Shown here: positions 2,661-29,872 of the stretch, piece by piece
Layout: each line of letters starts with the position of its first letter
How positions within the stretch are numbered: position 1 is the first letter of the stretch
IMG/VR virus record: IMGVR_UViG_3300031514_000050
Coordinates: 1-38,741 of that record
Strand: one strand, 5' to 3'
Origin: a virus
Length of the DNA: 38,741 nt
Made by a program: the position numbers and the translations under genes
Notes under the pieces: generated by a model
The model's input: only the letters and a program-made list of their open reading frames with translations
Databases searched by the model: none
Told to the model about the DNA's origin: nothing

Positions 2661-4910
2661 ATGCCTATAGTTGTGCGACATGATGTTTCGCCGTTGTTTG
2701 CTGGTTATGCGGCTTATCGGGCCGGTGAAGCGCGCGGTGCTGTGGAGATGGCACAGCACATGCAACGGATGGCATTGGAGCGCGAAAAGCTTGAGAGGGC
2801 CAATGCGCTTGAGATGCTGCGGTTGGCGATGGAACATCAAATGCAGCAGCAGATGATGCCGCTGCGATTTATGGAGGCGATGCAGCGCAACATTGCACTT
2901 GAGCAAGCGCAGCGACGGCTTGGGCTGCAAGAGAAAGAACATGAGTTGAGGGTTGCGGCTTTTGAGCGTGCCCCGGAATTGATGGAAAGGGAGCACCAGC
3001 AGCGGCTGGAACTGTCGGAGAGGGAGCACCAACAGCGACTGGAATTACAGAGAGCGAAAGAGGCGTGGGAGCGGGAACAGCTTCGCAGGCGGCAGGAATG
3101 GGAGTTCATATCCGAACAGCACAAGCGGATCAGCCAATGGGCACTTGACAAATTGAATCGGCTTATCCCTGAACATCAGACCCAGGCAAGGAGCAGGCTT
3201 GCGAGGCTTGACCAAGTGGTGGCGAGAGGAGACTTGTCAGCCGAGCAGAAGGTGCAGCTCATGAATCAGATTGTGGCCGAAATAGATGCTTTGCCGGAGA
3301 TTGACCCGCGACAATTGGCTCAACGAGCGCTTGAGAATAACACTGCTGTTGACCCGGATACTGAACAAAAGTACTTCGTTACAGAGCGGAACGGCCGTCC
3401 GTATGTGCAACCGCTTTCTCCGAATATTGAGGCAGAAGCTAAAACATACGAGGCGCGTCTCAAGCAGTGGGAGGCTATGGAGAGAGCCTTGAGAGCACAA
3501 ATAGAGCATCGAAGAAAAATGATACAGGATGCAACGAGGGAAGGCGAAGACACGACTGCGTTGAAAGCGGCCTTGGAAGAACTGGAAGTTAAGTGGTTTG
3601 ACCATTTCAGTAACATTCCAGAGTCACCAGAGTTTACTAGGTTTAAGGAGGCTCAGCGACGGTCTGAACAACCGCAGCCGTCGCCCAAGCCGACCGAATC
3701 CAGGCCGCCTGTAGAGCAACCCACACCGCCGCCGCCACCACCAGAGCCAGAATTGTCGCTAGAAGAGAAGGTTAAGGCGGCATACGAGGCGATAAAGTCT
3801 AGTCCAGTTCAGATACCAGATGCACCCACTGAGCAGCAGTTGGCTGCTATGTCGCCTGGCGAATTGAGCAATGCAATGCAACCGCTGGCAGATGCTATAG
3901 GGAAACTGGTGGACCAGAAAAAGGCGCTCAATAAGGCCGAGCTTGAGAGGGACATCTACAATGCAGGTTTTAAAGACGTAGAAGCTCGCGCCAGTGCTGT
4001 GGAGGAGCAGTATCGGAAAATACAAAGGCACTTGGACATTGCAAGCGAGATGGAACGCGCGCGCAAGCAGGCTATGGAAGCGCGAAATAGAGGGGACACG
4101 CGGCAGGCGGCCAACTACATGACGCAGTTTTACGCTTTGGCTCAAAGGCGGAATCAGTCGCTTCTTGAGCCGAGGCTTTCACCGGATGCTTCGGTGCGCG
4201 AATTCGCCGAAGCCCATTTGAGAGGTTTGATAGCTGGCCGAATGCCGACCAGCATCAAGGAGTTCGCGCAAAAGAAGTATTGGGAACATTTGCAAAAGGC
4301 GGATATTCCTTCGCACTATGAGAAAGACGCTTACAACCTGCTTACAGGGAATGTCGAATCACTGAGGCGTAGCGATGCAGCAGAGCTATTGCAGTGGGCG
4401 AATAAGCAACGACGAGATACTGGTGGACGTACAAGAGAAGCGCTGGAAGCTTTGGCTGCTGCGGCTCGCAATTTTCTGTCTACTATTGATTCTTATGCGG
4501 ACGTATCTGACCTTGCGAAAAAGCCTTCTTCTTGGACGCCTGCGGATTATGCAAAAGTAGCAATAGCTGTTGACAATTTGCGACTAGACGAAAATGACCC
4601 CCGTCGGCGGGCTGTGGCCGATTATGAGGCTAAGCGCATCATTCCTTCTTTGGAAAAGCTTGCGAAGGTTGCGCCAGCCGCAGGGGAATCAGCAGACGTG
4701 GAAAGGTCTTTGAAGCGTCTTGCTGATTGTCTCATGTATCGAGTTGCAATGCCGGAACCAGAATTGGAGTTGCTGCGCAGCTACAACAAGAGGCTGTTGC
4801 GTTTTGCACATCAGTCGGCCCAAGAGTATTTACCTGACGTACATGCCTTGCAGGCGGCTATCAACGTGGTGGGAGACCTCGCGCGATGGCAATGGGCAGT
4901 AATGAGATAG
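2661..4910 (+). CDS. Coiled-coil internal virion protein
   Basis: A 749-residue, strongly helical, Glu/Gln/Arg-rich protein. Residues about 25-170 form a long coiled-coil-like stretch with internal repeats (two successive REHQQRLEL units). Residues 335-365 are a Pro/Gln-rich linker, and 370-749 are again alpha-helical with heptad-like patterns. The start follows GAGG about 9 bases upstream. The end overlaps the giant gene by 25 bp, suggesting translational coupling and matched stoichiometry. By position and composition it resembles the middle member of a podoviral ejection-protein set (14/15/16 type). No enzymatic motif was seen. Confidence 0.7.
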   Translation: MPIVVRHDVSPLFAGYAAYRAGEARGAVEMAQHMQRMALEREKLERANALEMLRLAMEHQMQQQMMPLRFMEAMQRNIALEQAQRRLGLQEKEHELRVAAFERAPELMEREHQQRLELSEREHQQRLELQRAKEAWEREQLRRRQEWEFISEQHKRISQWALDKLNRLIPEHQTQARSRLARLDQVVARGDLSAEQKVQLMNQIVAEIDALPEIDPRQLAQRALENNTAVDPDTEQKYFVTERNGRPYVQPLSPNIEAEAKTYEARLKQWEAMERALRAQIEHRRKMIQDATREGEDTTALKAALEELEVKWFDHFSNIPESPEFTRFKEAQRRSEQPQPSPKPTESRPPVEQPTPPPPPPEPELSLEEKVKAAYEAIKSSPVQIPDAPTEQQLAAMSPGELSNAMQPLADAIGKLVDQKKALNKAELERDIYNAGFKDVEARASAVEEQYRKIQRHLDIASEMERARKQAMEARNRGDTRQAANYMTQFYALAQRRNQSLLEPRLSPDASVREFAEAHLRGLIAGRMPTSIKEFAQKKYWEHLQKADIPSHYEKDAYNLLTGNVESLRRSDAAELLQWANKQRRDTGGRTREALEALAAAARNFLSTIDSYADVSDLAKKPSSWTPADYAKVAIAVDNLRLDENDPRRRAVADYEAKRIIPSLEKLAKVAPAAGESADVERSLKRLADCLMYRVAMPEPELELLRSYNKRLLRFAHQSAQEYLPDVHALQAAINVVGDLARWQWAVMR

Positions 4911-7900
4911 AGCGGTTGTTCGAGTCATTCAAAGCGATTGAGCCTATACGGCACGACGATTGGCTTTATGAAGCCGAGATGCCGGAACCCTTTGCCGAAG
5001 AGCCGAAGCCCGCGCGGGAGACTGAGTTTGACTTGTCTCGATATGGGTTAGGCCGGATTCGCGTTCCGCTGCCGGAACCAGACCCCTCTTTGAGGCATCA
5101 ATTGCCCAAGCTTCCCACCCTGAGTCCATACAAGCTTTCTGAAGAAGAGGTGCGAAGCTGGGTATCGGAAAGGGCCAAATACGAGCCAAATGCAGGCGGA
5201 TTGCAAAATGCGTTGATTGCTCATTTGGAAGCGCAAAGGGAGGGAGAGCAGCGGCGATGGAAAGGTCCACGGGGCGAGAAGCTGCCTGAAACCCCGGAAG
5301 AGTTGAGCAGGCAGATTGGTACTTTTCTTTTCGATACTGCCGCTCGGTCTTCGCCGGAACACTTGCACGGGATGGATATAGACCGGCTAGTCGCCGAGAG
5401 ATTTGCCCCGGCAATCGACTATGTGGCACGGAAGCACAACTTGCAATTGGGTGAAATGAAGTTTTCGTCGAAGGAGTTGCGGCAGCGCCTTCGGCAATTG
5501 TCTCTGTATGGCTACCGCGGGCGGTTGTTTGCGCAGGAAGTCATAAATACTGCCAACACGACTGCCCGTCGGCGTCTGGCGGAAAATGCTGCTGACCTGC
5601 TGCGCGAGGCTACCGATGAAGCGCGGGCCGCATTCTGGATGGGGGTTCAGTTTGGTGCTGAGAGTTACTACCGAAAAGATGATGTGGCAGGCGAGCTGAA
5701 GGAACTGTACATTGGGCCTTGGGAAGCAATAAGCAGGTCTGGCTACAACCTTCTGTGGGGGCGCTCAGACGACCAGTTGTCTGCGCAGTTGAAACAGGCA
5801 GCCGACTATCTTTACAAGTCCAAAAGTGTAGAGGGGTTGCCCTGGTGGGGCACCTTTGCGTGGCAATCACAACAAGTGCTGTCAGACTTGATTCCGATAA
5901 CTTTGGCCGTTTACGCCGGTGGAGCAGCCGGGGCCGCTGTAGGCGAATCCCTTGCTGGCGGTGGGGCCGCTTTGACGGTCGCAAAAGGAGCACCGCTTGC
6001 GGTCAGGGCTGCAACAACAGCAGGCCAATTTCTCGGTTTGCGGCTTACGACGGGTCTAGTCCAGCAAGAAGACGTAGCGCGGGGGTTGATTGCCGAGGGC
6101 GTAGACCAGCGAACTGCGTTCTGGGCGGGGGCGGCAGCAGCAACGCTGGATTCTGTCATTGAGTTGTGGTTGCCGTTGCCTGGGTCGGAGCGACTGGCTG
6201 TTGCGAAGACTATAAAGGGTGCGTTTCTCAACGGAGTGAAACAGTTTGGAGTGGATTTCGCGACAGAGTCTGCGGAAGAATTGCTGCAAGGCATTTCGCA
6301 AACCATTGCCGAGCACTTTGCGCGCAGATTGAGCGGTGTACCCGACCGTGGGCTTGCTACTGAGTTGTATGAGTCGGTGCGTGATACGACAAAGGTACTG
6401 CCGTCATTGGCTTTTGCGATACTGCCTACGCAAGTTCCTCGCCTTGTTGGCGATGCAGCATTGCAGCGCGCGGTTCTCAAACACCGTCAAGCATGGCAGT
6501 GGTTTACTGACCAGTCAGTGATGCCGACGGTCGAAGAGGTCAGAGCGAAAGGCATTCCTGTCGAAAATGAAGCCCAAGTTGCAGAGCTTTGGCAGAAGCG
6601 CGAACTGATTGGGCACCTTATCAACAGTCCAGAAAGCTTCCAGAATGTTGCCGTTCCGATGAAGCTTGATGCGCCGGTGGAGTATCGGCGCAATGGCAAG
6701 GTCGAAAAGCATCGACTTGGAGACCTGGCGCAGCAAGTCTGGGATAGTCTTCCTGTGCCAGACCGAGGCTGGTACGCGCCGACGGAATACATTTCCAAGT
6801 CATGGAATGACCTGCCCAAGGATATTCAACAGCGGCTTGCGTGGGTATTTTTCCCCGCGTTGAGGGGCAATGCCGATTACATGGTGATGCCGGGCGAAGA
6901 AGCGGCGGAGGCACCTGCTGAAGCAGCGCCAGAAGCGCCGCAACCACCGGCGCCGCAACAGCCACAGGAGGTGCCGCAGCAACCACCAACTCAGCCAGTA
7001 CCAGTTGAGGAGCAACCGCCGGCTCAGCCGGTACCAGTCGGGGAAGCGCCACCGCAGCAACCACCAGCCCAGCCGGTCGAGCCGATTACCGAAGAAGAGG
7101 CCAAGGGTACGCAAATCGACCCTGACTTTGTGTCCCCCGTACAGCCGCCGCCTGCCCAACCTGTAGAGCCGCAAGAGCAGCGATGGGTGCTCACGGCTCA
7201 CGGCCCGTTCACACAGGAGCAGATGAACTGGTTTCAGGAACACCAATATTCACTGAGAGACGTTCCTGCCCTGGTGGAGTTGGCCAAAAAGACCGTTGTG
7301 TTCCAAGGCCCATCTCTGGTCAGCTTGTATGACTATGCTCGCCAGAACCTGGCTGCCGGTGTAGAAACAGGCCGGATAGCCAGGAACTGGGTTTCCAAAT
7401 CGCCATTGCGTGACCTTGAACTTCCAACTGTGGAAGCGTATGTCCGTGCGGTGCAGTGGGATATTGATACGAAGCCCTGGCAAGAGTGGAAACTGAGCCG
7501 TTACGTTGCAGTGCAGAACGTGGCTGGCTGGGCGGCTGACGTGCCAGTCAGCGGCCCGCACGACAACCTTTTCGGCCTTATCCGTGCCGTCTATGAGGAA
7601 ACCCCAGAGCGCTTTCGCACCCCGGAATCCCTTGTACACAATCCGCAAATTGTGGAAGTGGCGCGAACGTATCCCATTCCGTTTAAATACCTCGAACCCG
7701 TTGTCAGAGCCAGCGTGGCTGCCCTGGAAGCCAAGTGGGCGGTTGCTGCTGGAAAGCCATACCGGAAAGAAGACTTTGGCGAGGGCGGTAAGGCCATAAA
7801 AGATTTGGAGGACAGGCTTACCGAGCAAGCACACGACCTAATTGTACCCAAAGAAGCCGTCCATTCGCTTCTGGCGATGGATATGGTGTTTGCCATTTTA

Positions 7901-10900
7901 GAGGAATCATTGCCAGGATTCTGGAAGGCTGTTAAAGAAGCCGTAGCAGAGGCTCCGCTGGACTTGTCTGTACAAGAACTTGCCCAACACATTCAAGGTC
8001 GAATCGCAGAAAACAACCAATTGGCCCCATTCTTCGAGGGCGAACCTGATTTGCTCGAAAGGGTTGCGAGGTTCGCTGCGGACGTACCTCTGCATTTGGC
8101 GCTCTCGCCAGAGATGCGGGTGCGAAAGCCCTTGTGGCTTGAAGCGGATCAGGCGCTCACGTTGTTGCGCACTATGCTTGGCAGCGCAGCGAAGGCGAAC
8201 AATCCTGCATTTCAGCCACTATCGGTTCGCCACGAATCGCTGACGACTTTGAATCGTGTGATTGGCGCGGTCAGACTTTCAGAGCCTGTTAAGACCGCGA
8301 CAGTGTTGACGACAGTTCTGAACAGCGCTTACCAGGACACGAAGGAGGCCAAAAAAGCTGTCAATGCTGCGCTCAGTGAAATGTCCCCGAAAGACCGGGA
8401 GGCCCTGGAACCGGTTCGCAACGTGCTGGTGGCGGCTTTTCCTTACTTGGTGAAGACCCAGGAGCCACCTAAACAAACCGTTTTCGTCGAGCCGTTGAAA
8501 ACCCTGCCATTGGAGAATGTTTCGCCCGCGCTGATTCAACGGGAATTGTCATATTGGGCGTACTGGGCAGGCATTATGTCAGAGAAACCCCCTGCCGCAC
8601 CTGAGGCCCCGCCCCCTGCTGCGCCACCGTCTGCCCCTGCGCCGCCTGCCCCCCCCCCTACTCCGCCTGCTGCGCCGGAGGCCTCCGCTGCTCCGCCTGC
8701 TGCCCCCCCACAGCAATCGCTGACGGTTCCGGAGCCGGTGAGCGACCCGGCGGATATGAACTCTTACACTGACCCATCTTCTCGGCGTGTACGGTTGCCC
8801 AATGGGGGAAAACAACTTGAGGTATTGGATACGATTGAGCAATGCCAGGCAGTTCGCGGACCAGCAATAGTCAAGACAGAGTTGTTGAGCATCGACCCAG
8901 GGAAGTTCCAGTACAAGCGCGAAGCCAACAAAGTCACGGGGATTGTCAATACGAATGTGCTGGACTTGTCTTGGAACGAGGCCCTGGCCGGGATTATCCA
9001 CGTCTGGTTCGATCCGCAGTCCAACAAGGTTTATGTGATAAACGGCCATCATCGTTACCAAATAGCCTTGAAAAGTGGAGTTCCCCATGTAACGTGCTAT
9101 TTCCTGGACGCCGCTAATGAACAAGAGGCACGCCAGTCCGGGGCGCTGGTAAACATCGCAGAGGGCCACGGCGACGTAATGGATGCCGCCGTGTTCTTGC
9201 GGGAGATGCGTAGAGGGAACGAAGACCTGCGGGAGCTGCTGGCCAAACACAACGTGTCTGTGAAGGAGGAGGAGAAGCTGGCCTACTTGGGGCTGGGCCT
9301 GGCAATGCTTGCGGAGCCGCTGTGGAAACGATACGTTGACGGGGAAATCAGCGCTACGTTGGGTGGAATTGTTGGCAATGAGCTATCCGATGACCCGGAG
9401 TTGCAAAAGGACGCGATACACTACGGCAAGCAATTCAGATCGGAAGAAGAGATTAGGGAGTTATGCAAACTTGTTCGGGACACAAAAACCAAGCACAAGG
9501 AAAGGACGCTATTTGGCGAAGTGGAAATTGCCGACAGTTTGCTTCCCTGGATTATCAGGGTGCGCAGTGCGGTGCGCAAGGAGTTGAACGATCGCATCAA
9601 GGCTTTAAGGGTTGCCAGCAAGGAGAAGTTGGCAGAACCTCTCGAACAACTTGGGAACGTGATATTTACCGACAAGAACCTGAGTGAACTTCAAAAATTG
9701 ATTGGGATTCGGGAGTATTTTCTTCAGTTTCAGAACTACAAAGGGAAGGTGGCAGATGCAATCAAAGAACTCGCGGAGCAGGCGGAAAAAACAAAACGCA
9801 TTGATGCGAAGAAGGCGTTTGAAACGATTCAAGAGGCGATATTGCAAGAACTTGATTTCCAATCGGGACAAGCTACTGCGCGACTTGGGGAATTACCAAA
9901 AAGTCCTGATGGAACTCTACCTTCCTCCAACACACTTCTCTCTGTGAATCCTGGGCAGTTAGGGCCGGTTTTTCCAAATCCGATTGCCACCTATGTGCAA
10001 CCAGCGTCGCGTCAAGAGTTTTTGAAGCGGATCAGGCTGCCAGAGTTCCGCCAGGCGGCCAAAGATTGCTGGGAAGGCCGCAACGGCGTTTGGCGATTGA
10101 TGAGGGCGATTCAGGAATACACGGGGGCGGAATTGCTCATCAGCAGAACGCAACTGTCCAGAGTAAGAGAAGGTCGCAAGCCGGCAGCGGGGATGTACAA
10201 GCCGCACCTGGCTATCAGTGCAGGGTATGAACCTGACAGCATCCACGAGCAAGTGCATGCGCTATTTGAGATTATGCTTTCTTCCCTGCCTTATAATGCA
10301 GAAGTGGAGGTAATGAGCATTCTTGCCGAACACGGGCCAGGAGTGCTTGACGCGATAAACCGAAAAATCAACGATTCAGAAAAGATTCGCTTGGAAGCCA
10401 TTGCTGAGGTAGCAACCGCTTTTATCACTGGACGTTTGCGAAGCAAGGAGTTCTGGAAACATGCCGGGAACATAATTAGAAGACTTCAAGCGGTAGACCA
10501 CCCTTACGTCAAGCAAATGCTGGACGTGATGTTTGATTCCTGGAACATCTACCACTACCTGGCGCGACTGTCGAACGACACCAAGATGGAATTGGTGCGA
10601 AAAGACGAGCGTCGGCCCTCCGACTGGCGAAAGGCGGCCTGGACGGCCTTGATGAATGTGGTCGGCCGGCGTGTAGGGTACATATACTATCTGCGTCGGC
10701 TGAAACAAGTAGTTTACAATTCTCGGCGGTGGGCATCGACCGAGGAAACTGCCAGACAGTTGTGGAAGAGAGTACATGCCTTCATCGACAGCCTTCATGG
10801 CACAGAAGCGGATGTGAAGCTGACGACGCAGTTGACCAGTTATGCCCCCCACATGGCTGGCAGGTGGATGGTGGAATCAGGCCCGATTGCCCTCTACCTG

Positions 10901-13783
10901 CCTTTTCTGCTTTCCAAAAAAGATGCTCAGTTCATCAAAACAGGATTGCGCCAACTGTCGCACTATCAATCGCAGTTGGAGCAGTGGGATGCTTTTATTG
11001 ATGCGATTTCCGACCCGAAAAATCGCAACATGAGGATTGCTTTCTTCCCACAGAGCGTCCGAGATGTGCTTGATGAACTGGTCAAGCAAGGCGGCAGCGA
11101 AGCGGTCTTCTGGGAGTACGCCCAACTCCGGGCGATTCTACATCGAGGCGATGTGTGGGGCCAGCAGACGTTGACCACTGAGGAAGACGTTGACGAGCGG
11201 CAGAAGGTCACCAAGCTGATAGAGGACATCGAGAACTCGCCCACTGGCCAGGCGTACAAGGACGCAGCGGCCAAGATGCAGACGATATTCGACCGTCTGC
11301 TGCTGTTGTCGGTAATAAACGGCGAAAAGACTGCGCCAGAAGCGTTGGCCATGATGGCGGCACAGTTTGTGTACTGGCCGTTGCGTGTGGACTTCGACGC
11401 GCCTGCCAGGAATCGGGCGATGGGCGAAACGCCCCGGTCTGACATCTACTATGCACAGGGTGGGCTGGGGGGCCGCCACGAAAGTGCCAGGGCTGTCGAA
11501 ACGAAGATGCGGCGTGCTGTCGTGGCGTACTACGATCAATCCCATATCAAGTCGGTCATCAGGCAGCTTCAGGCCATAAAGAACAATCCCGAAATGCCGG
11601 GGGAACTGCGAACGATGGTTTCCGGGCTGATGGTGAAGTTTTACGAGGACGTAAAGCCAGCTTCAGTGCGAATCTCCAAGAAGCGCATGGCCGAGTTGAT
11701 TAAAGAGGTTACAGGCCGGGAAGTTGACCCGGATTCGCTGTTACTGAACGAGGACTTCTACACCTATGAGTTTTTCCTGTCTACCAGGCCCAAAGCCCCA
11801 AATATAGTGGAAGACTACAAAAACGGCGTGCGGGAGTATTACTTCCTTCCCGACCCCGTAATGTTCCACTGGCTTGGCTCGACAAACATTTCGGAATGGC
11901 CACCGTGGATACGCAAGGTGATCCGCTATGCTGGAAAGATAGTTCGCCCGATTGAATTGCCGTATGTGCGAAACATCGGCTTCGCACTTACCAACATGTT
12001 CAGGGATGAGGCCTTCGCTGCTGCGATGGGCACAGGGATAAAAGACGCGCTGGTTCCGTTTTACTATCACCTGCATGGACTGGCAGCGCTGATAACGAAC
12101 AAAGAGTTGGCCGACAAACTTACATTTGAACTGCTGGGCACGCATGGGAAGGCGATCGGTACTTGGACTTCGGTGGCTCAACTGCCGGAGCTTTACGTGC
12201 AAAGGCTGAAAGAAACTGCCACAAGCGGGTTTGAACCACTTACCAGCAAAGAATTGCGCTGGTGGGAGAAGGCCATTGCGTTGCCTGCTGTGTTCTTTGT
12301 CAATGCCCGCACCAAGCCGGTACAACTGGTGATTGAAGCCACCGGGCAGGGCCTGGTGGCCGAAGGTCTTGAAAGCCTGCCGCGCCTCGGAGCTGCCAAA
12401 CTAGCCCAGGAGAAAGGGTTGACAGACGCCGAAGTGCAGATGGCTGCAAGCATGATTACTGGCAATTTCTCTCAGCGCACGAAAAACCAGGCTGTCAGCG
12501 ACATGATGAGCATGAGCATGTTTGTCAACCCAATGGTTCAGATAATGTGGCAGATATTGGAGGCAGCTGCGCTCGATCCCACTCCTGGGCGCAGGGCGAC
12601 GTTCTGGCTGCGGCTGCCGCTGTTCGGCTTGAAGGGAGCGATGCTTGCCGGTACGGTCGCATTGCTGGGGCCGGTGATATACAGGCTCATGGGCCGTGAT
12701 GAAGACGAGTGGATTAAAGATGAAATGGAACGGTCTGCCGGCGACAGGGCGCGGTATGTCCGTCTCGGGCCGTTCAGATTGCCACGCCCGGAATCGGTGT
12801 GGGGGCTGGTGCAGCATCTTGTCTACAACGTTACGATGGACTTGATTGCGTCGCGTGGGCCAGACTGGAAGGTTGCCGCCAAAACCGTAGTGGATGAGCT
12901 TTATGATGTTGTGGGACGCACCATGTTCAAGAGCGAACCTTGGATATGGGCAGAGCTTCATCAGTTGGCATCAAACTGGAACTTCTTCAAGGAGAAGGAA
13001 ATCGTAGGAGGGCTTTTGCGAGAGCTTTACCCAAACAATCCAGAATTGCAGTACTGGCCGGACACGCCGAAGACGTACCGCGCAATGTCGCGGGCGCTCA
13101 GTAGCGTGGGAATTGGCATCAGCCCGTTGAAAATCGAACATTTCGTCAACGCTTATCTGACGCGGCATACCCATGACCTGATACGGTTTGCCGAACACAT
13201 GACAGGCTGGCACCCGACGCTTCGAGAGGTGGCCGACTTGCCGTTCATTGGTCGAGTCATGGCCCGCACTCCGCGCGGATATGCTTCCAGAAGCGTGCAG
13301 GATGTGCGTGACCTTGCAGCTGATTACAGGGCTTTAGTGGCCAGAATGAAAGCGGAGGTCAAAGAAGGCAACGTGCCATCACAGGATGCCAATACGTTTC
13401 TTGAAGAGGCGTCCAAGCTGGTAATATATGACGTTATGAAGTTTGAGATAGACAAACTAGGACGCGAGAGCCGGGAGTTGCGGCTCCAGGGGAAAATCCA
13501 GGAGGCCGCGAAGATTGACGAGCAGATGACTCTGATGGCCGCTGCGATTTTCAACAGTGCCAACAAGCGGTTGACGGTAGACGTACTGCGGAAGCTGCAC
13601 AAGCGGCTGTATCAACGGGCCTCCGAAAGCTTGCCCGCTGGCAGTACAGAACAGGAAAGAATCCAGTACAATCTCAAGCGACAAGCAGCGCGTTTGGGCA
13701 TGAGGCATATCCGAGAAGAGATTAAGAGACTGGAGAGCAATGATGATTCAAGCGCTAAGCGGCCCGTTTCGGTTGGGCCTTAA
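4886..13783 (+). CDS. Giant polyvalent / internal virion protein (ParB-like, zincin, LPD38-like)
   Basis: A 2965-residue protein covering nearly a quarter of the window. ATG 4886 or 4892 both fit an upstream GGAG. Visible parts in order: a helical N-terminal region; a Gly/Ala-rich hydrophobic segment near 335-375; an ESAEELLQG helix near 455-480; Pro/Gln/Glu-rich linkers at 670-766 and 1233-1278; a ParB/sulfiredoxin-like domain near 1325-1440 with NGHHR at 1386-1390; a zincin-type HEQVH (HExxH) at 1787-1791; a long helical region; a P-x-RN...N-x-FRD motif near 2360-2380; and an LPD38-like region near 2470-2700 (NFSQRTKNQ, FVNPMVQIMWQ) with a hydrophobic segment near 2580-2605. This matches the polyvalent-protein theme described by Iyer, Aravind and colleagues: multidomain proteins carried in with phage DNA. 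Ejection and catalysis are inferred. The N4-type virion RNA polymerase, also huge, was considered but no polymerase motif was recognised. Confidence 0.85.
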   Translation: MAMGSNEIERLFESFKAIEPIRHDDWLYEAEMPEPFAEEPKPARETEFDLSRYGLGRIRVPLPEPDPSLRHQLPKLPTLSPYKLSEEEVRSWVSERAKYEPNAGGLQNALIAHLEAQREGEQRRWKGPRGEKLPETPEELSRQIGTFLFDTAARSSPEHLHGMDIDRLVAERFAPAIDYVARKHNLQLGEMKFSSKELRQRLRQLSLYGYRGRLFAQEVINTANTTARRRLAENAADLLREATDEARAAFWMGVQFGAESYYRKDDVAGELKELYIGPWEAISRSGYNLLWGRSDDQLSAQLKQAADYLYKSKSVEGLPWWGTFAWQSQQVLSDLIPITLAVYAGGAAGAAVGESLAGGGAALTVAKGAPLAVRAATTAGQFLGLRLTTGLVQQEDVARGLIAEGVDQRTAFWAGAAAATLDSVIELWLPLPGSERLAVAKTIKGAFLNGVKQFGVDFATESAEELLQGISQTIAEHFARRLSGVPDRGLATELYESVRDTTKVLPSLAFAILPTQVPRLVGDAALQRAVLKHRQAWQWFTDQSVMPTVEEVRAKGIPVENEAQVAELWQKRELIGHLINSPESFQNVAVPMKLDAPVEYRRNGKVEKHRLGDLAQQVWDSLPVPDRGWYAPTEYISKSWNDLPKDIQQRLAWVFFPALRGNADYMVMPGEEAAEAPAEAAPEAPQPPAPQQPQEVPQQPPTQPVPVEEQPPAQPVPVGEAPPQQPPAQPVEPITEEEAKGTQIDPDFVSPVQPPPAQPVEPQEQRWVLTAHGPFTQEQMNWFQEHQYSLRDVPALVELAKKTVVFQGPSLVSLYDYARQNLAAGVETGRIARNWVSKSPLRDLELPTVEAYVRAVQWDIDTKPWQEWKLSRYVAVQNVAGWAADVPVSGPHDNLFGLIRAVYEETPERFRTPESLVHNPQIVEVARTYPIPFKYLEPVVRASVAALEAKWAVAAGKPYRKEDFGEGGKAIKDLEDRLTEQAHDLIVPKEAVHSLLAMDMVFAILEESLPGFWKAVKEAVAEAPLDLSVQELAQHIQGRIAENNQLAPFFEGEPDLLERVARFAADVPLHLALSPEMRVRKPLWLEADQALTLLRTMLGSAAKANNPAFQPLSVRHESLTTLNRVIGAVRLSEPVKTATVLTTVLNSAYQDTKEAKKAVNAALSEMSPKDREALEPVRNVLVAAFPYLVKTQEPPKQTVFVEPLKTLPLENVSPALIQRELSYWAYWAGIMSEKPPAAPEAPPPAAPPSAPAPPAPPPTPPAAPEASAAPPAAPPQQSLTVPEPVSDPADMNSYTDPSSRRVRLPNGGKQLEVLDTIEQCQAVRGPAIVKTELLSIDPGKFQYKREANKVTGIVNTNVLDLSWNEALAGIIHVWFDPQSNKVYVINGHHRYQIALKSGVPHVTCYFLDAANEQEARQSGALVNIAEGHGDVMDAAVFLREMRRGNEDLRELLAKHNVSVKEEEKLAYLGLGLAMLAEPLWKRYVDGEISATLGGIVGNELSDDPELQKDAIHYGKQFRSEEEIRELCKLVRDTKTKHKERTLFGEVEIADSLLPWIIRVRSAVRKELNDRIKALRVASKEKLAEPLEQLGNVIFTDKNLSELQKLIGIREYFLQFQNYKGKVADAIKELAEQAEKTKRIDAKKAFETIQEAILQELDFQSGQATARLGELPKSPDGTLPSSNTLLSVNPGQLGPVFPNPIATYVQPASRQEFLKRIRLPEFRQAAKDCWEGRNGVWRLMRAIQEYTGAELLISRTQLSRVREGRKPAAGMYKPHLAISAGYEPDSIHEQVHALFEIMLSSLPYNAEVEVMSILAEHGPGVLDAINRKINDSEKIRLEAIAEVATAFITGRLRSKEFWKHAGNIIRRLQAVDHPYVKQMLDVMFDSWNIYHYLARLSNDTKMELVRKDERRPSDWRKAAWTALMNVVGRRVGYIYYLRRLKQVVYNSRRWASTEETARQLWKRVHAFIDSLHGTEADVKLTTQLTSYAPHMAGRWMVESGPIALYLPFLLSKKDAQFIKTGLRQLSHYQSQLEQWDAFIDAISDPKNRNMRIAFFPQSVRDVLDELVKQGGSEAVFWEYAQLRAILHRGDVWGQQTLTTEEDVDERQKVTKLIEDIENSPTGQAYKDAAAKMQTIFDRLLLLSVINGEKTAPEALAMMAAQFVYWPLRVDFDAPARNRAMGETPRSDIYYAQGGLGGRHESARAVETKMRRAVVAYYDQSHIKSVIRQLQAIKNNPEMPGELRTMVSGLMVKFYEDVKPASVRISKKRMAELIKEVTGREVDPDSLLLNEDFYTYEFFLSTRPKAPNIVEDYKNGVREYYFLPDPVMFHWLGSTNISEWPPWIRKVIRYAGKIVRPIELPYVRNIGFALTNMFRDEAFAAAMGTGIKDALVPFYYHLHGLAALITNKELADKLTFELLGTHGKAIGTWTSVAQLPELYVQRLKETATSGFEPLTSKELRWWEKAIALPAVFFVNARTKPVQLVIEATGQGLVAEGLESLPRLGAAKLAQEKGLTDAEVQMAASMITGNFSQRTKNQAVSDMMSMSMFVNPMVQIMWQILEAAALDPTPGRRATFWLRLPLFGLKGAMLAGTVALLGPVIYRLMGRDEDEWIKDEMERSAGDRARYVRLGPFRLPRPESVWGLVQHLVYNVTMDLIASRGPDWKVAAKTVVDELYDVVGRTMFKSEPWIWAELHQLASNWNFFKEKEIVGGLLRELYPNNPELQYWPDTPKTYRAMSRALSSVGIGISPLKIEHFVNAYLTRHTHDLIRFAEHMTGWHPTLREVADLPFIGRVMARTPRGYASRSVQDVRDLAADYRALVARMKAEVKEGNVPSQDANTFLEEASKLVIYDVMKFEIDKLGRESRELRLQGKIQEAAKIDEQMTLMAAAIFNSANKRLTVDVLRKLHKRLYQRASESLPAGSTEQERIQYNLKRQAARLGMRHIREEIKRLESNDDSSAKRPVSVGP

Positions 13784-16776: not shown

Positions 16777-17223
16777 TCAGAATGGAACACCCTCGTCATC
16801 TGACGGAGCATTTTCCTCGGCAACCGGCGGCAAGGCTTCCCCGCGCCGGCGGCGACGCTCTCTCGACTTGGCGTTGCGAATCAACTGCGTGAGCACCATG
16901 AGTTCATCGTTGTCGATTGGTGCTGGCTCCGGAATGAAACGGTCAATCACGTACTCGCCGTTTTCTTCGCGTAGTTGGCAGAAAACCGTTCTGCCGATTA
17001 GCTCGAAGTTTCCGTTGGTCAAATCAACAAGGCTGTATGTGTCGGGGTCGAACCCGCAAGCCTTCAGTTGCTGCCTGGCGAATCCCGGGTGGGATTTGGA
17101 AAGCCAGATCGTGCCTGTAAGCGCGCCGTATGGCGTCTGTACGGTTAACTCCAAACCTGGAGTTCCTTTATTGGGACTCCGCCGCCAGTCGACGTTTCGT
17201 ATGACGCCCTCTACTACTTGCAT
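16777..17223 (-). CDS. SSB-like single-stranded DNA-binding protein
   Basis: A 148-residue protein. Residues 1-100 are beta-rich (GVIRNVDWRRSP, GLELTVQTPYGALTGTIWL), compatible with an OB fold. A basic RERRRRRGE stretch follows, and the protein ends in an acidic tail finishing DDEGVPF. An acidic tip with a terminal Phe is the hallmark of bacterial SSB and functional analogues such as T7 gp2.5, used to recruit partner proteins. Its start overlaps the end of the Sak4-like gene by 10 bp, and SSB plus Sak4 is a known phage pairing. The specific family is not certain, as the fold is inferred. Confidence 0.7.
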   Translation of the reverse strand: MQVVEGVIRNVDWRRSPNKGTPGLELTVQTPYGALTGTIWLSKSHPGFARQQLKACGFDPDTYSLVDLTNGNFELIGRTVFCQLREENGEYVIDRFIPEPAPIDNDELMVLTQLIRNAKSRERRRRRGEALPPVAEENAPSDDEGVPF

Positions 17224-18188
17224 GTTCCGTTTCCTTTCTTCTGAAGAAGTGCTTGTTTGATTTTATAGCATCGCTGTAGTTCTGCGATGTCGGCATTGTG
17301 CATCAACGCTTTGGACTCCGCTATTTGACGACCAGCGTACTGTAACTCCTCCAGTGTGGTAGCGCTTTCAATCGCCTGGCGGCCTTGCTGGAATAGCCGT
17401 GACGCTTGTTGCTGCCGTTCCAGTTCTTCCGCGGCAAGCCGTTCGGCGTCCCGTATCCCAACTTCTTCGTCGTCAGCAATCTGCGCCTGGCTGCCACCGC
17501 CAAGTGCTCTTGACAGGGGGACGCAGATGTTCTCGTAACTGGGCCACTCAATCGTTTGCCCTGCCAAAATCCCGGTTCTGTCCTTTTCGACGGCGGCCCG
17601 AACCACGCCACCGTCATTGGTCAACCGGAGCAAAATGTGTGGTTCATAGGGAGTTTCTCTCTCAGCCCTCATGGTCACGCCGGTGACCACCAGTTCGCCG
17701 CTCCCATCCTGAGCGTATTCGTATTTTTCTCTACCACAGATGATAACGTGTGCACTGGAATTGAGAAGCGCTAACATGAGTTGACGGTAGGGACGCTTTA
17801 TCGCATCCCATGCGTGGAGGGGGATCGTGTCGATTTTTGTCCGGCGGCCAGTGTAGGCCGCAACGGCTGCATCCCATAGGTGGGTAATGGAATCGACGAC
17901 AACCACCCCATACTTGGGGTCAAGCGTACGGATAGCCGTAAGCGCGTCGACTAGACTTCGGCTGTGGAGCACGTCGAACTTGAAGCCTTGCGGATGTATC
18001 GACCGCTCAGCAATGTCTTTGGCGTAAAAGTCGGTGCCGTGTTCTGTATCGATAACGGCGACCGACTTTCCAGTTTCGTTGGCTAGCCCCTCCGCTAGCA
18101 GCAGGGCCGTGAAGGTTTTCCCGGCCCCGGTTCGACCATACAGGCCGAGCTTCAGCACTATCTGTTGCGGGCGCGCTGGCGTGAACAT
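17214..18188 (-). CDS. RecA-fold ATPase, Sak4-like recombinase
   Basis: A 324-residue P-loop ATPase. Walker A GRTGAGKT is at 18-25 and Walker B VVVVDS at 95-100, with CGREKYEY near 151-158 in the AAA_24/Sak4-type context. Such phage proteins bind single-stranded DNA and anneal or exchange strands together with SSB. Residues beyond about 225 are a helical, Gln/Ala/Glu-rich C-terminal extension (AERLAAEELERQQQASRLF) that may mediate oligomerisation. It lies between an unknown 143-residue gene (3 bp gap) and the SSB-like gene (10 bp overlap). Assignment as a recombination ATPase is firm by motif and context; Sak4 itself is an inference. Confidence 0.8.
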   Translation of the reverse strand: MFTPARPQQIVLKLGLYGRTGAGKTFTALLLAEGLANETGKSVAVIDTEHGTDFYAKDIAERSIHPQGFKFDVLHSRSLVDALTAIRTLDPKYGVVVVDSITHLWDAAVAAYTGRRTKIDTIPLHAWDAIKRPYRQLMLALLNSSAHVIICGREKYEYAQDGSGELVVTGVTMRAERETPYEPHILLRLTNDGGVVRAAVEKDRTGILAGQTIEWPSYENICVPLSRALGGGSQAQIADDEEVGIRDAERLAAEELERQQQASRLFQQGRQAIESATTLEELQYAGRQIAESKALMHNADIAELQRCYKIKQALLQKKGNGTCK

Positions 18189-18623: not shown

Positions 18624-18802
18624 TCTGCCGCTTCCTCTTCGGCGTCCATTTCGTCTGCTTTTGCCCGCAGGCGGTTCGCTTCGATTTCGCGTCCGATACC
18701 GTCCCATACGGACGCCAGCGACCTCAGATGCGCGGCCTGCCACCTGGACAGCCGCAAGAGAGTTTCCTGCAATTCCGCGAGGACTTCAAGTTCTTCGTTC
18801 AT
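18620..18802 (-). CDS. Short helical protein
   Basis: A 60-residue, acidic, wholly helical protein. The start is the ATG at 18802, which overlaps the exonuclease stop by one base and has GGAG six bases upstream; a GTG three bases earlier is less likely. The leucine pattern (ELEVLAELQETLLRLSRW) suggests coiled-coil dimerisation. Tight coupling with the YqaJ-type exonuclease suggests an accessory role. Function unknown. Confidence 0.6.
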   Translation of the reverse strand: MNEELEVLAELQETLLRLSRWQAAHLRSLASVWDGIGREIEANRLRAKADEMDAEEEAAE

Positions 18803-19626
18803 CACTTTCTCCTTGTTACTTTGAGGGTTCGGAATCGGCTCTCTGGAACCGTATACGCCTTTCGCACAGTTTCGATGTAGGTGATGAGCCGGCCGTCTGG
18901 TAGTTCGGCTGCTTCGGCATCACCGAGATAGCTGACGATTTCGTTTTTGAGTCTGTTGATTTCGGCCTCCAGTTCCTTCTGCTGGGTCAGCAACTGTTCC
19001 CGCCGATCAATCAGTTCGACTATGTGTGGGTCAGTAAGCGTGACCCTCTCTCCCCGAAACATATCCTTTTCGGGCGTCGCATCTTGTTCCGGGGGCAGGT
19101 CGGCCAGGACGTGCCGCTGCCACCACTGGCACAGCTTCTCGACCAGCGCCTGTTGGAGGGTTGGCCGGGCGGGAACCTGGAACATGCAAACGCCCCGTCC
19201 AGCTATCAGTGCGGGCACAAATGCCACATCGGCACCAGTCGCAGCCAGTTGTATGTGAACCTGGCATCGGTAGTATTCCGGGATCAAATCGGTTCCCTCT
19301 TCTCCCCAGGGGTCGTGATTGTTGCTTGTCAATCCCGCTGTCTTGGCCTCAACGGGCTGACCGCCAACCGTAATCCCGTCGGGGTGAACGATGAGCGTGT
19401 TGTCGATGATAAACTCTTTTCCCCTCTCCAGTGGGCCGAGCCGTTGCTCTGCCCACTCAAGCAGGAAGCTCTCAAGATAGCTTCCAAGTCGCATTGCAAT
19501 GGTTTCCGGCTGTGGGCCACTGCGTCCGGTCTTTTCCAGCCACACTTGATATGGGGTGCGCCAAGGGCAGAGACCGAGCACAGCGGCGGCTTCGGACGCG
19601 CCCAAGTAAGAACTGCGGTTTTGCAT
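18802..19626 (-). CDS. YqaJ-type (lambda-exonuclease fold) recombinase exonuclease
   Basis: A 274-residue nuclease expected to resect double-stranded ends 5' to 3' so that the recombination ATPase and SSB can act. The YqaJ pattern is visible: GASEAAAVLG near 9-18, an early acidic position E52 (GSYLES), the catalytic D83 (HPDG), the E93-x-K95 pair (VEAKT) and Q122 (RCQVHIQLA). The C-terminal third (190-274) is a coiled-coil-like extension (REQLLTQQKELEAEINRLKN). GGAG precedes the ATG. It starts the block exonuclease, small proteins, Sak4-like, SSB-like, RusA. Confidence 0.88.
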   Translation of the reverse strand: MQNRSSYLGASEAAAVLGLCPWRTPYQVWLEKTGRSGPQPETIAMRLGSYLESFLLEWAEQRLGPLERGKEFIIDNTLIVHPDGITVGGQPVEAKTAGLTSNNHDPWGEEGTDLIPEYYRCQVHIQLAATGADVAFVPALIAGRGVCMFQVPARPTLQQALVEKLCQWWQRHVLADLPPEQDATPEKDMFRGERVTLTDPHIVELIDRREQLLTQQKELEAEINRLKNEIVSYLGDAEAAELPDGRLITYIETVRKAYTVPESRFRTLKVTRRK

Positions 19627-21600: not shown

Positions 21601-21639
21601 AGCCGTAACCCTTTCTTTAAAAGAGAAAACGAACACAAG

Positions 21640-21669
21640 CCTAGCCGTTTCCACAGCCTAGCCGTTACA
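21640..21669 (-). promoter_or_regulatory. Recurring leader motif, tandem copies 4 and 5
   Basis: Two copies of ACGGCTAGG lie 17 bases apart on the minus strand, the distal one as TGTAACGGCTAGG, upstream of the start at 21600. A partial GGTTACGGCTATG copy overlaps the start codon itself. Confidence 0.45.
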
Positions 21670-21812
21670 AAATGCCTAGTTTCCCTAGGCTGCCTACCTT
21701 GCCTATTCCCCCTACCTTGCCTATCCCCCCCTATCTTTCCTATCCCTCCTATCTTTCCTATCTCCCCTGCTGCTTCCCTCTAGGGTCAGGGGCAGGGGCT
21801 TCTGCCCCCTGT

Positions 21813-21941
21813 GCTCCCGTCCAGGGGCAAGGGGCATTGGCCAGCGCCCCCTGCTGCTCCCGTCCAGGGGCAAGGGGCATTGGCCAGCGCCCCCTGCTGC
21901 TCCCGTCCAGGGGCAAGGGGCATTGGCCAGCGCCCCCTGCT
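21813..21941. repeat. Three perfect 43-bp tandem repeats
   Basis: Units start at 21813, 21856 and 21899 on the + strand with GCTCCCGTCCAGGGG and continue identically for 43 bp. Each unit contains the palindrome TGGCCA between GGGGC and GCCCC arms, so it can fold. They fill a 387-bp spacer (21601-21987) whose remainder is pyrimidine-rich short-repeat sequence with no supported gene. Confidence 0.9.
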
Positions 21942-23198: not shown

Positions 23199-23478
23199 TG
23201 CAAATGCCATGCCAAAATGGGTTACTGCAAATTGCGTGCCAAACTACTCTGTGCAAATCCCATGCCAATTTCGATAGTGCAAATCCTATGCCAAACTAGT
23301 CTCTGCAAATACTGTGCCAATTCCAGCTACTGCAAATCCCATGCCAAACCAATTGCTGCAAATTGCATACCAATTGTGCTACTGCAAATACCGTACCAAT
23401 TGGGGTTAGTGCAAATACCATGCCAATTTTCATAGTGCAAATCCCATGCCAAATTGCTTACTGCAAATACCATGCCAA
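23199..23478. repeat. Eleven-copy 17-bp iteron array, period 26-27 bp
   Basis: Consensus on the + strand is TGCAAATNCCATGCCAA. Copies start at 23199, 23226, 23252, 23278, 23304, 23331, 23357, 23383, 23410, 23436 and 23462. The mean period is 26.3 bp, 2.5 turns of B-DNA. Each copy contains two direct TGCMAA hexamers 11 bp apart. The 9-10 bp between copies are not conserved. A lone TGCAAAT follows at 23532. Candidate binding array for an initiator, partition or regulatory protein. Confidence 0.9.
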
Positions 23479-23539
23479 TTGAACAATGGTTATTGGGTAG
23501 GTGGTGATTAGGGGTAGTGTTACCTAGTCTGTGCAAATT

Positions 23540-27195: not shown

Positions 27196-27657
27196 TCAGT
27201 GGTTAGTGGTGGTTTGTGCTCTACGTTTTTTAGCCTTTTCAGGTGCCATTCTGGCCCGCTCGCGCTCGCGTCGGGTGACAGCCCTGAGCAGGGTTCGCAC
27301 CGCTTGTTGTTCCGCGGCAAGCTCTGCAAGCCGCCGCCGCAATTGCTCACTGTCCAGCTTTTCAAGAAGTCGCGTCGCGTCTATGCCGCCAGCATGGCAC
27401 ATTTCCTCCGGCGTTGCTGGCGGCGGGTGAAAGGTTGTGCTCCAGTCGATTTCCCCTGCCGCCTTTTCCCCGGCCCGCATTGCGACTTCAATCCAGTTTT
27501 TCAGGGATTCACCTACCTCCCGCACCTCGGCAGCCAGCACTCGCAACTTCTCCGCAGCCTGATGTAGCTGCGAGGAAACGGCGTCAAGGCCGTCGGCGAT
27601 CCGCTCTGGCGTGCCGGGTTCAGGGGAAAAATTGGAGATAGGTGTACGGCTCTCCAT
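27196..27657 (-). CDS. Helical coiled-coil protein
   Basis: A 153-residue protein with two long helices: 20-60 (ADGLDAVSSQLHQAAEKLRVLAAE) and 95-135 (LLEKLDSEQLRRRLAELAAEQQ), then a basic tail (RRERERARMAPEKAKKRR). GAGG precedes the ATG. It lies immediately downstream, in transcription order, of the long NNGCC array. The basic tail could contact nucleic acid. No family was recognised. Confidence 0.6.
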   Translation of the reverse strand: MESRTPISNFSPEPGTPERIADGLDAVSSQLHQAAEKLRVLAAEVREVGESLKNWIEVAMRAGEKAAGEIDWSTTFHPPPATPEEMCHAGGIDATRLLEKLDSEQLRRRLAELAAEQQAVRTLLRAVTRRERERARMAPEKAKKRRAQTTTNH

Positions 27658-27676: not shown

Positions 27677-28086
27677 ACGCCTCGCCTTGCCTGCCATGCC
27701 TTGCCCTGCCTGCCATGCCCCGCCAAGCCGTGCCTTGCCTAGCCTCGCCGCGCCCCGCCCAGCCGCGCCGGGCCCAGCCACGCCGTGCCAAGCCAAGCCC
27801 TGCCCCGCCTGCCAAGCCCTGCCCTGCCCTGCCTGGCCGAGCCGGGCCCCGCCACGCCGAGCCTTGCCGCGCCGCGCCATGCCCAGCCAAGCCACGCCGA
27901 GCCCAGCCGCGCCTGCCAAGCCATGCCTTGCCTTGCCCCGCCGGGCCGAGCCCTGCCATGCCATGCCTTGCCGCGCCGCGCCATGCCATGCCACGCCGAG
28001 CCGCGCCATGCCACGCCTCGCCTGCCAAGCCTCGCCATGCCTCGCCCAGCCAAGCCTTGCCTTGCCCAGCCGAGCCAGGCCTTGCC
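27677..28086. repeat. 83-unit NNGCC pentanucleotide array
   Basis: The 410 bp are made of 78 five-base NNGCC units and 5 four-base TGCC units, with nothing else. GCC is invariant in all 83 units, while the leading dinucleotide takes 15 of 16 forms. The first N is almost even (A25 T17 C17 G19). The second N is T28 C24 A21 but G only 5. The TGCC units from the second onward recur every 20-22 units. Long ORFs cross the array in several frames only because it lacks stops. It fills the whole 432-bp spacer between two leftward genes; the leftward transcript would carry GGCNN. Confidence 0.95.
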
Positions 28087-28089
28087 CAA

Positions 28090-28575
28090 CTAATGCCCGG
28101 CTTCAGATAATGCGAAGCGGTCGATTACCGCAAATAAATCCGCGAACTCAACTAGAGCCGCGTACTTCCGCCGCCACCACTGGAGTTCGCGGTAGGCCTT
28201 CTCAAGAATCTGCTGCCGCGTTGTCTCGTCTCGCATCGCAGCACACACGTGCGAATACGCCTTGCTGTCGCTTTCACGCTCCAGACAGACAAACGCCCGC
28301 ACCGGCTCGAACTTGTGCTCGCCTTCTTCGGGGCGGACCACCACGGCTCGAATCAAATAGTCAGCCTGGCGAAGCCTGTACTGATGTGCTGCCTTGCCGT
28401 CATCCCACTCGAAGTACCGATGCAAGGGATGATTCTTCTTCGCGGCTTCTCTCACTACTGCTTCGGCCTGGAGCCAGCCCCCGTTCTTTTGCCGGATTTC
28501 CTCCAGGCATTCCCCGACCACTTGCGGGTCGCCGCAAAGACGGAAGCCGCTGCGGAAGTCGTACCTATACCTCAT
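28090..28575 (-). CDS. Conserved phage protein with LHRYFEWDD motif
   Basis: A 161-residue protein. The ATG at 28575 follows AAAGGA; a longer reading to 28767 lacks support. The central segment (NHPLHRYFEWDDGKAAHQYR, then LRQADYLIRAVVV) belongs to a motif I recall from hypothetical proteins of many phage early operons. The C-terminal half is helical (TRQQILEKAYRELQWWRRKY). The stop lies only 3 bases from the NNGCC array. No catalytic role is known to me. Confidence 0.7.
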   Translation of the reverse strand: MRYRYDFRSGFRLCGDPQVVGECLEEIRQKNGGWLQAEAVVREAAKKNHPLHRYFEWDDGKAAHQYRLRQADYLIRAVVVRPEEGEHKFEPVRAFVCLERESDSKAYSHVCAAMRDETTRQQILEKAYRELQWWRRKYAALVEFADLFAVIDRFALSEAGH

Positions 28576-29261
28576 GTGCTTTTCCTTTCCTGCTGCAAGG
28601 CCACTATTTCTTCTTGCGATGCCACATGGAACAATCCCCATTGGCCGCCGCGCTCTGGACGTCCTTCGCCTACCCCTATTCCGAATCCGGCCACCTGGAA
28701 AAGGTTCACGATTTGATCGAGGCTGAGGACGTTGGCGTTGTAGCGAATCGTCAGACACGTGTGCCACGGCCAGAACTCAGCGCGAAAGCGTATATCGGCC
28801 ACGCCCGTGGGTAGCCGCACAAAATCTCGTCGCGGCTTCGGTTTCCCCTCGATCTTCACATACTCGCCCACGATGTGCATTGCGGCCCGCGCTTTGGTTT
28901 TGGCTACGCCATCGACCTGTGGGCAGGCCTCGACAGCCGCCGCCTTGAAGGCAATTGAGGGAAAGCCGAACGCACCTTTCTCAATGTCTTCCTCTGTGGG
29001 CGATTCCGGGCACTCTGTGAGGATATACTGCGGCGGGCACCCGGTGAGCCAGTAGAGGGAATTGCAGAAGTCTTCCCAGGGATTTTTCGCTTGCTTTGCG
29101 TGCCGCGCTTTTTTCATTTGCTTGCCGAGAATCTGTTGCTCGGCCTTTGCGTTCCAGGCGTGGCAGATAAGCGGGCTATCGCCCACCAGATAAAGTTGAC
29201 ACGTTTCGATAGGGAGTGGGGGAATCGGAACATCTACCTCGGTTCTTCTTCTGCGTGCCAT
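28572..29261 (-). CDS. Conserved phage early protein
   Basis: A 229-residue protein. The ATG at 29261 has AGGAG eight bases upstream; a start 18 codons earlier is less likely. The N-terminus is very basic (MARRRRTEV). Residues 25-80 contain SPLICHAWNAKAE; the C-terminal part includes GFGIGVGEGRPERGGQWGLFHV, a Gly-rich ending I recall from conserved phage proteins near replication genes. The beta-rich core with a Gly-rich loop is compatible with a ferredoxin-like nucleic-acid-binding fold, but that is speculative. Its stop overlaps the next start by 4 bp. Confidence 0.65.
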   Translation of the reverse strand: MARRRRTEVDVPIPPLPIETCQLYLVGDSPLICHAWNAKAEQQILGKQMKKARHAKQAKNPWEDFCNSLYWLTGCPPQYILTECPESPTEEDIEKGAFGFPSIAFKAAAVEACPQVDGVAKTKARAAMHIVGEYVKIEGKPKPRRDFVRLPTGVADIRFRAEFWPWHTCLTIRYNANVLSLDQIVNLFQVAGFGIGVGEGRPERGGQWGLFHVASQEEIVALQQERKST

Positions 29262-29311
29262 AGATTCTGCTCCTTTTGTGAGGGAAAAGCCCGAAATGGG
29301 CGTTGTCTCGC

Positions 29312-29872
29312 TCATTGATGTGTATCACCGAACAGCAAATGCAGACGCCGCCGATACTCGACCGCCCGACGCCAGGCTTCCCGCATCGCCCAACAGGTTG
29401 TTGCGGGAAAACGGGAGTTGGTTTCGACCGGCCCACTCTGTCGAGCCAATTGGTCGGCTTGCTCGTCGGCAGCGTCGGCCAGGGCCGGTAGCGTCGCGTG
29501 ACAATATCTCACGATGTATGCAGTGTCTTCGCCGCCCATTTGCAACTGCCAGGCAATTTGATGAGCGAGCCTTGTTCGGGCCTCGCTGCTGGACACATCC
29601 AGCCGGTCGCGGAATATCTCGTGCTGACCATGATGAACAAGCACTAGTCTGGAATCGCAGCCGTCCCACGGCGCGACTGCGAAGGTGACCTTGGTCTGCT
29701 GTTGGTCAAGCATTGCATGACCTCCTTTAGCTCTCCCACAAGCGCGGATGTGTCGTTTCAACTCATAGTTCTGCTTTGCTAGCTCAATCGCCTGACACCG
29801 GTAGCATTGCCCACACTCGCCTGTCAGGCACACCACGGTTTCCATTCGGTCGTCAGGCGTTCTGGTACTCAT
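29312..29872 (-). CDS. GECG-CYRC zinc-motif protein with a probable internal start
   Basis: A 186-residue protein. The N-terminus holds C15-x4-C20-x2-C23-x2-C26 (CLTGECGQCYRC), close to the motif of the 84-residue gene at 20139-20393. The C-terminal 133 residues (LDQQQTKVTFAVAPW onward) are a separate alpha/beta region with HHGQHEIFRDRL and a helical end. The ATG at 29713 (codon 54, in frame) is preceded by a strong AAAGGAGG seven bases upstream, better than the signal before the first ATG, so two in-frame products are likely. The first ATG overlaps the previous gene by 20 bp. Function unknown. Confidence 0.65.
   Translation of the reverse strand: MSTRTPDDRMETVVCLTGECGQCYRCQAIELAKQNYELKRHIRACGRAKGGHAMLDQQQTKVTFAVAPWDGCDSRLVLVHHGQHEIFRDRLDVSSSEARTRLAHQIAWQLQMGGEDTAYIVRYCHATLPALADAADEQADQLARQSGPVETNSRFPATTCWAMREAWRRAVEYRRRLHLLFGDTHQ

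What the first reader, a model, noticed from the sequence alone, without database searches (positions are those of the whole stretch)
27677..28086. An 83-unit NNGCC array with invariant GCC and nearly free NN
Seen: every one of 83 consecutive units ends in GCC, yet the leading dinucleotide takes 15 of 16 values. Neutral decay after slippage would hit GCC as often as NN, so something constrains GCC at 5-bp spacing or builds the array unit by unit. The 5-bp period is not a codon multiple, so protein coding cannot be the constraint. G at the second N is rare (5 of 78), which lowers the number of GGCC palindromes. TGCC interruptions recur about every 21 units (roughly 104 bp). Inference: a binding array touched every half helical turn, a recombination or packaging signal, or a templated-extension product. 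I know of no described phage element like it.
Basis: partly seen in the sequence, partly recalled or inferred. Interest (0 to 1): 0.8.

Follow-up and report, generated by a model that had tools for sequence, protein, structure and literature searches.

The report
Phage VIPR guide-RNA repeat array
The strange 83-unit repeat is almost certainly the guide-RNA array of a VIPR system, a recently described relative of CRISPR carried by phages, in which the two variable letters of each unit spell out the DNA of a rival element to be silenced.

Summary
In detail: 83 GCC triplets, 77 of 82 spacings exactly 5 nt. On the strand of the flanking genes the array reads GGCNN. Of 111 loci with such degenerate arrays (window included), 86 encode one protein family, phrog_4652, which matches the solved 'SUSP1 Vipr protein' (PDB 36pp, E 1.9e-29). 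Its predicted structure matches CRISPR RAMP subunits. A 2026 preprint (PMC13142463) describes VIPR: a RAMP-like Vipr protein plus vrRNAs of alternating GGY/NN, whose NN pairs recognise DNA with a one-base skip and repress competing phages. The window holds the whole cassette: vipr (28572-29315-), a phrog_15946 gene (28090-28575-) and the array (27679-28086-). So it is a known kind. Added here: the 'TGCC interruptions' are GGCA units, the dominant 4-nt punctuation of such arrays (119 of 134); they concentrate in a Vipr clade (support 0.999) that also carries phrog_15946 and includes cultured mycobacterial and Gordonia phages. Close relatives keep GGC while NN turns over. No secure target was found; one guide matches 11 of 12 dinucleotides in a viral gene (suggestive only).

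The parts
27679..28086 (-). vrRNA array: 83 GGC units in sense orientation, 77 GGCNN and five GGCA
   Evidence: chance excluded
28023..28086 (-). first guide segment: 12 NN (AA CT TC TG AA AA TT TG GA AT GA TT) then GGCA
27914..28022 (-). second segment: 21 NN then GGCA
27810..27913 (-). third segment: 20 NN then GGCA
27711..27809 (-). fourth segment: 19 NN then GGCA
27679..27710 (-). short 3' end of the array: 3 NN, GGCA, then the last GGC units before the ribosome-binding site of the next gene
28572..29315 (-). vipr gene (RAMP-like, phrog_4652), 247 aa as called; the conserved part starts near residue 30, so the true start may be internal
28090..28575 (-). phrog_15946 gene, candidate vipr accessory protein (vap); overlaps the vipr stop by 4 bp (ATGA) and its stop lies 4 bp before the array
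   Evidence: the start at 28575 is read from the first Met of the conserved region

Best explanation
The array is the guide-RNA array (vrRNAs) of a VIPR system encoded by this phage. The minus strand is transcribed, in the same direction as vipr and the accessory gene, into RNA of GGCNN repeats. Vipr, a small RAMP protein related to Cas7, is inferred to coat the RNA, one subunit per 5-nt unit, holding GGC. This exposes the NN pairs, which base-pair with double-stranded DNA at two of every three bases (one-base skip). Binding represses genes of competing phages, satellites or prophages. GGC is fixed because the protein reads it; NN is free because it is the address. GGCA units, which break the 5-nt register, most likely mark guide boundaries. 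Shown here: array, gene neighbourhood, homology, fold, strand bias, GGC versus NN turnover, clade. From the preprint, for other VIPRs: RNA expression, Vipr-RNA binding, skip rule, repression. Inferred: that these apply to this locus, and the role of GGCA.
For: Arrays with free NN are common in viral contigs, while most genome-contig hits to a similar pattern are low-complexity microsatellites. The commonest gene family at such loci lies a median 35 bp from the array, in 60 of 111 loci, and 59 of 60 copies point the same way relative to GGCNN. With an HMM it is in 86 of 111. All 24 aligned members match phrog_4652; the profile matches PDB 36pp 'SUSP1 Vipr protein' at E 1.9e-29. The AF2 model of the window protein (pLDDT 84.8) has 26 PDB hits at E<=0.001, all CRISPR complex subunits, mostly Csm and type VII. 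The preprint defines vrRNAs as GGY alternating with hypervariable NN. Close pairs show the core conserved and NN changed between conserved flanks.
Against: No RNA data for this phage. No secure target: six 8- or 9-NN probes with the one-base skip in viral contigs gave none or hits that mostly stop at chance level. Three segments hold 19-21 NN, more than the 9-16 repeats the preprint reports. No non-repeat 3' tail was seen between segments. 25 of 111 loci lack a detectable vipr in the DNA held, some because the contig or stored stretch ends close by.
Confidence: 0.93

Rival explanations
1. An RNA array bound by the Vipr-like protein for regulation of the phage's own genes (TRAP-like: a triplet plus two free bases wound round a protein assembly), without guiding to DNA.
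For: The spacing resembles TRAP sites (GAG/UAG plus two bases; own knowledge). The array sits just upstream of a gene on the same strand.
Against: The partner is a RAMP homologue, not TRAP. The homologous SUSP1 system is shown to target DNA (PMC13142463). NN turns over fast between close relatives while GGC stays, as expected of guides, though relaxed spacers could also vary.
Confidence: 0.04
2. A DNA-level element: protein-binding array on half helical turns, recombination or packaging site.
For: 5-bp spacing is about half a helical turn.
Against: Consistent orientation relative to genes (59 of 60) and location next to vipr; the 4-nt GGCA units break any helical phase.
Confidence: 0.02
3. A decayed microsatellite or an assembly artefact.
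For: There are some internal near-copies at 104-bp period.
Against: 83 of 83 GCC intact with 15 NN types; many independent contigs and cultured phage genomes (Saal, Pipp) have the same design.
Confidence: 0.01

Closest known systems
VIPR (Viral Interference Programmable Repeat) systems, PMC13142463 (bioRxiv 2026.04.26.720920)
   Same: Phage-encoded; Vipr RAMP protein homologous to SUSP1 Vipr (PDB 36pp); adjacent small gene; intergenic GGY/NN repeat array in sense orientation with hypervariable NN.
   Different: One contiguous 83-unit array without visible tails, segments of 12, 21, 20 and 19 NN divided by GGCA, GGC only (no GGT). [quoted passage not shown] S18), which may be this layout; the supplement could not be read.
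VIPR-like loci of Mycobacterium phage Saal and Gordonia phage Pipp (annotated as hypothetical proteins)
   Same: Vipr homologue at about 35% identity, phrog_15946 gene, GGCA-punctuated arrays.
   Different: In Saal the array lies upstream of vipr and its guides are about 11 NN, shorter than most segments here.
Class 1 CRISPR RAMP effectors (Csm3/Cas7-like)
   Same: Fold of the predicted Vipr.
   Different: No CRISPR repeats or cas operon noticed; one small protein; the free letters are dinucleotides within 5-nt units.
TRAP (trp RNA-binding attenuation protein) sites
   Same: Triplet plus two free bases on RNA (own knowledge).
   Different: Unrelated protein; about 11 units; no guide function (own knowledge).

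Membership tests
VIPR | Vipr protein: RAMP homologue with G-rich loop | tested here: met
   Profile hit to PDB 36pp E 1.9e-29; window protein itself hits phrog_4652 E 3.7e-15; RAMP fold
VIPR | Tandem GGY/NN repeats with conserved GGY and hypervariable NN near vipr | tested here: met
   83 GGC units, NN 15 types; GGC held and NN changed between close relatives
VIPR | 9-16 repeats per vrRNA | tested here: inconclusive
   First segment 12 NN; the next three 19-21 NN between GGCA units; RNA ends unknown
VIPR | Structured 3' tail after the repeats | tested here: inconclusive
   None seen between segments; Rfam has no hit in the window, but Rfam need not hold such a family
VIPR | Accessory vap gene, in some types a predicted DNA-binding protein | tested here: inconclusive
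VIPR | vrRNA expressed and bound by Vipr | not testable with these tools
   needs RNA sequencing and pull-down
VIPR | NN read DNA with one-base skip; targets in competing elements | tested here: inconclusive
   Best case 11 of 12 NN in L479, inside a 631-aa ORF with skip bases at wobble positions; chance level about 0.05 by my estimate
TRAP-regulated leader | TRAP protein as partner | tested here: not met
   Partner is a RAMP homologue

The most novel reading that the evidence does not exclude
The window represents a distinct VIPR architecture, in which GGCA register-breaking units punctuate long tail-less arrays and define guides, tied to one Vipr clade and to the phrog_15946 partner; GGCA may be the processing or termination mark recognised with that partner.
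Probability: 0.4. Interest if true: 0.6.

Novelty: new member of a known kind. Interest (0 to 1): 0.5.

Why it matters
VIPR is a new way to read DNA with RNA and a proposed forerunner of CRISPR. This locus supplies a complete cassette in an uncultivated phage. The comparison adds a testable rule (GGCA as guide punctuation) and points to cultured mycobacteriophages and Gordonia phages where it can be tested. It also shows that such arrays can be spotted by reading raw sequence alone.

Tried and rejected
Coding constraint: rejected (intergenic, frame broken by GGCA). G-quadruplex (GG tracts): considered; it would not explain the fixed C, not tested further. The strong predicted RNA fold (z -4.5) is not read as a functional structure, because shuffles destroy the 5-nt period that lets the repeat pair with itself. 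Target search: the first seg2 probe hits mostly one conserved viral motif (DVIMAAKMMS) and the seg3 probe mostly another (MAANSVGPSQ), each one family counted many times, so not significant. A local test of skip lengths over 4.2 Mb is biased, because many of the loci were fetched with one-base-skip probes from this array; not used. Two Saal guides in 401 family-level genomes gave 0 and 13 sites, all 13 with two mismatches: no target. A paper search for 'NNGCC' gave nothing relevant.

Full report
Observation. On the + strand it reads NNGCC, on the - strand GGCNN. It has 83 units, 77 spacings of 5 nt and five of 4 nt; shuffles of the same bases reach at most 12 five-base links. It fills the gap between the end of a minus-strand gene at 28090 and the ribosome-binding site of the next minus-strand gene (ATG at 27657).

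Recurrence. Nearly all have free NN. A scan of bacterial and archaeal genomes for twelve units also hit its limit, but most of those are perfect or near-perfect microsatellites. The two scans used patterns of different length, so the contrast is qualitative. Arrays with free NN (entropy 2.6 bits or more) occur in 111 of the loci, window included, at GC contents from 0.39 to 0.76.

Partner gene. Clustering all ORFs near these arrays gave one dominant family: 60 of 111 loci, median distance 35 bp, 59 of 60 copies in the same direction as GGCNN. With an iterated HMM it is found in 86 of 111, and in 9 of 129 other loci. It is phrog_4652 (24 of 24 aligned members). The profile matches PDB entry 36pp, 'SUSP1 Vipr protein', at E 1.9e-29, aligned over nearly its whole length. 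The AlphaFold2 model of the window's own protein (pLDDT 84.8) finds 26 PDB chains at E 0.001 or better, all from CRISPR complexes, chiefly Csm and type VII.

What is known. The preprint PMC13142463 reports VIPR: a phage-encoded RAMP protein and guide RNAs of alternating GGY/NN. The NN pairs read double-stranded DNA with one skipped base. The system represses competing phages and satellites. Seven types and six accessory genes are named; some have 'staggered arrays with overlapping vrRNAs'. The features that could be tested in the window agree, apart from guide length and tail, which stay open. The window therefore holds a VIPR locus: vipr 28572-29315(-), a phrog_15946 gene 28090-28575(-), and the array 27679-28086(-).

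Constraint. L102 and L106 have Vipr proteins 97% identical; their array cores agree in 107 of 108 bases, NN in 43 of 69, and the flanks in 148 of 156. The arrays differ in length (36 and 67 units) between the same flanking sequence. Aligning repeats inflates NN identity. One caution the other way: units were chosen by their GGY core in one of the two sequences, which favours the core somewhat.

Punctuation. Across 87 vipr loci, 119 of 134 four-base units are GGCA. They are far denser in loci with phrog_15946 (5.5 per 100 units) than without (0.7). Segments between GGCA are mostly 8-13 units; in this window the long ones are 20-22. On a tree of 92 Vipr proteins, 33 of 34 phrog_15946 loci fall in one clade of 38 (support 0.999), and 26 of the 38 have GGCA; changes of the phrog_15946 label number 6 against a mean of 28 in shuffles. 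Several array ends read GGCAGGCA. I infer that GGCA marks guide ends. Cultured members of the clade include Mycobacterium phage Saal and Gordonia phage Pipp.

Targets. Six probes with one-base skip were scanned in viral contigs and the hits extended to the whole segment. The first guide (12 NN) matches 11 of 12 in contig IMGVR_UViG_3300002925_000022 (L479), on the strand opposite to a 631-aa ORF, with skipped bases at wobble positions. My rough estimate of chance for the set of probes is about 0.05, so it is a lead only; the ORF has no PHROG. Other hits stop at chance level.

Verdict. Real, and strongly supported as a member of a system described only in 2026. The clade-wide GGCA punctuation and its link to phrog_15946 may be new, but the preprint's supplement was not readable here, so I do not claim it as new.

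Noticed in passing
window 23199-23481: Degenerate 26-bp repeats (TGCAAATNCCATGCCAA...) in a gene-poor stretch about 2.3 kb from a replication-initiation O-like gene (25778-26755-); could be origin iterons.
   Followed up: no
window 21633-21941: Several short repeat arrays (TGCCTACCTTGCCTA..., 43-bp units with 4.2 copies) close together.
   Followed up: no
window 17214-18188 and 18802-19626, minus strand: Sak4-like ssDNA annealing protein and YqaJ-like recombinase: recombination genes on the same strand as vipr.
   Followed up: partly
window 4886-13783: A single ORF of 2965 aa, nearly a quarter of the contig; not annotated here.
   Followed up: no
87 vipr loci, 4016 NN units: The first N is biased (G 36%, A 31%, T 20%, C 13%) while the second is even, perhaps to avoid GGCC self-pairing or because guides copy first codon positions.
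   Followed up: partly
L077, L112, L052: GGCA-punctuated arrays without phrog_15946, outside the main clade; L077 and L052 share another small gene family near the array (family 7), possibly a different accessory gene.
   Followed up: no
L232 158-583, L109 7072-7356, and other loci without vipr: Degenerate arrays with no detectable Vipr in the held DNA; L232 has 71 units. Either vipr lies beyond the stretch or a different partner is used.
   Followed up: no
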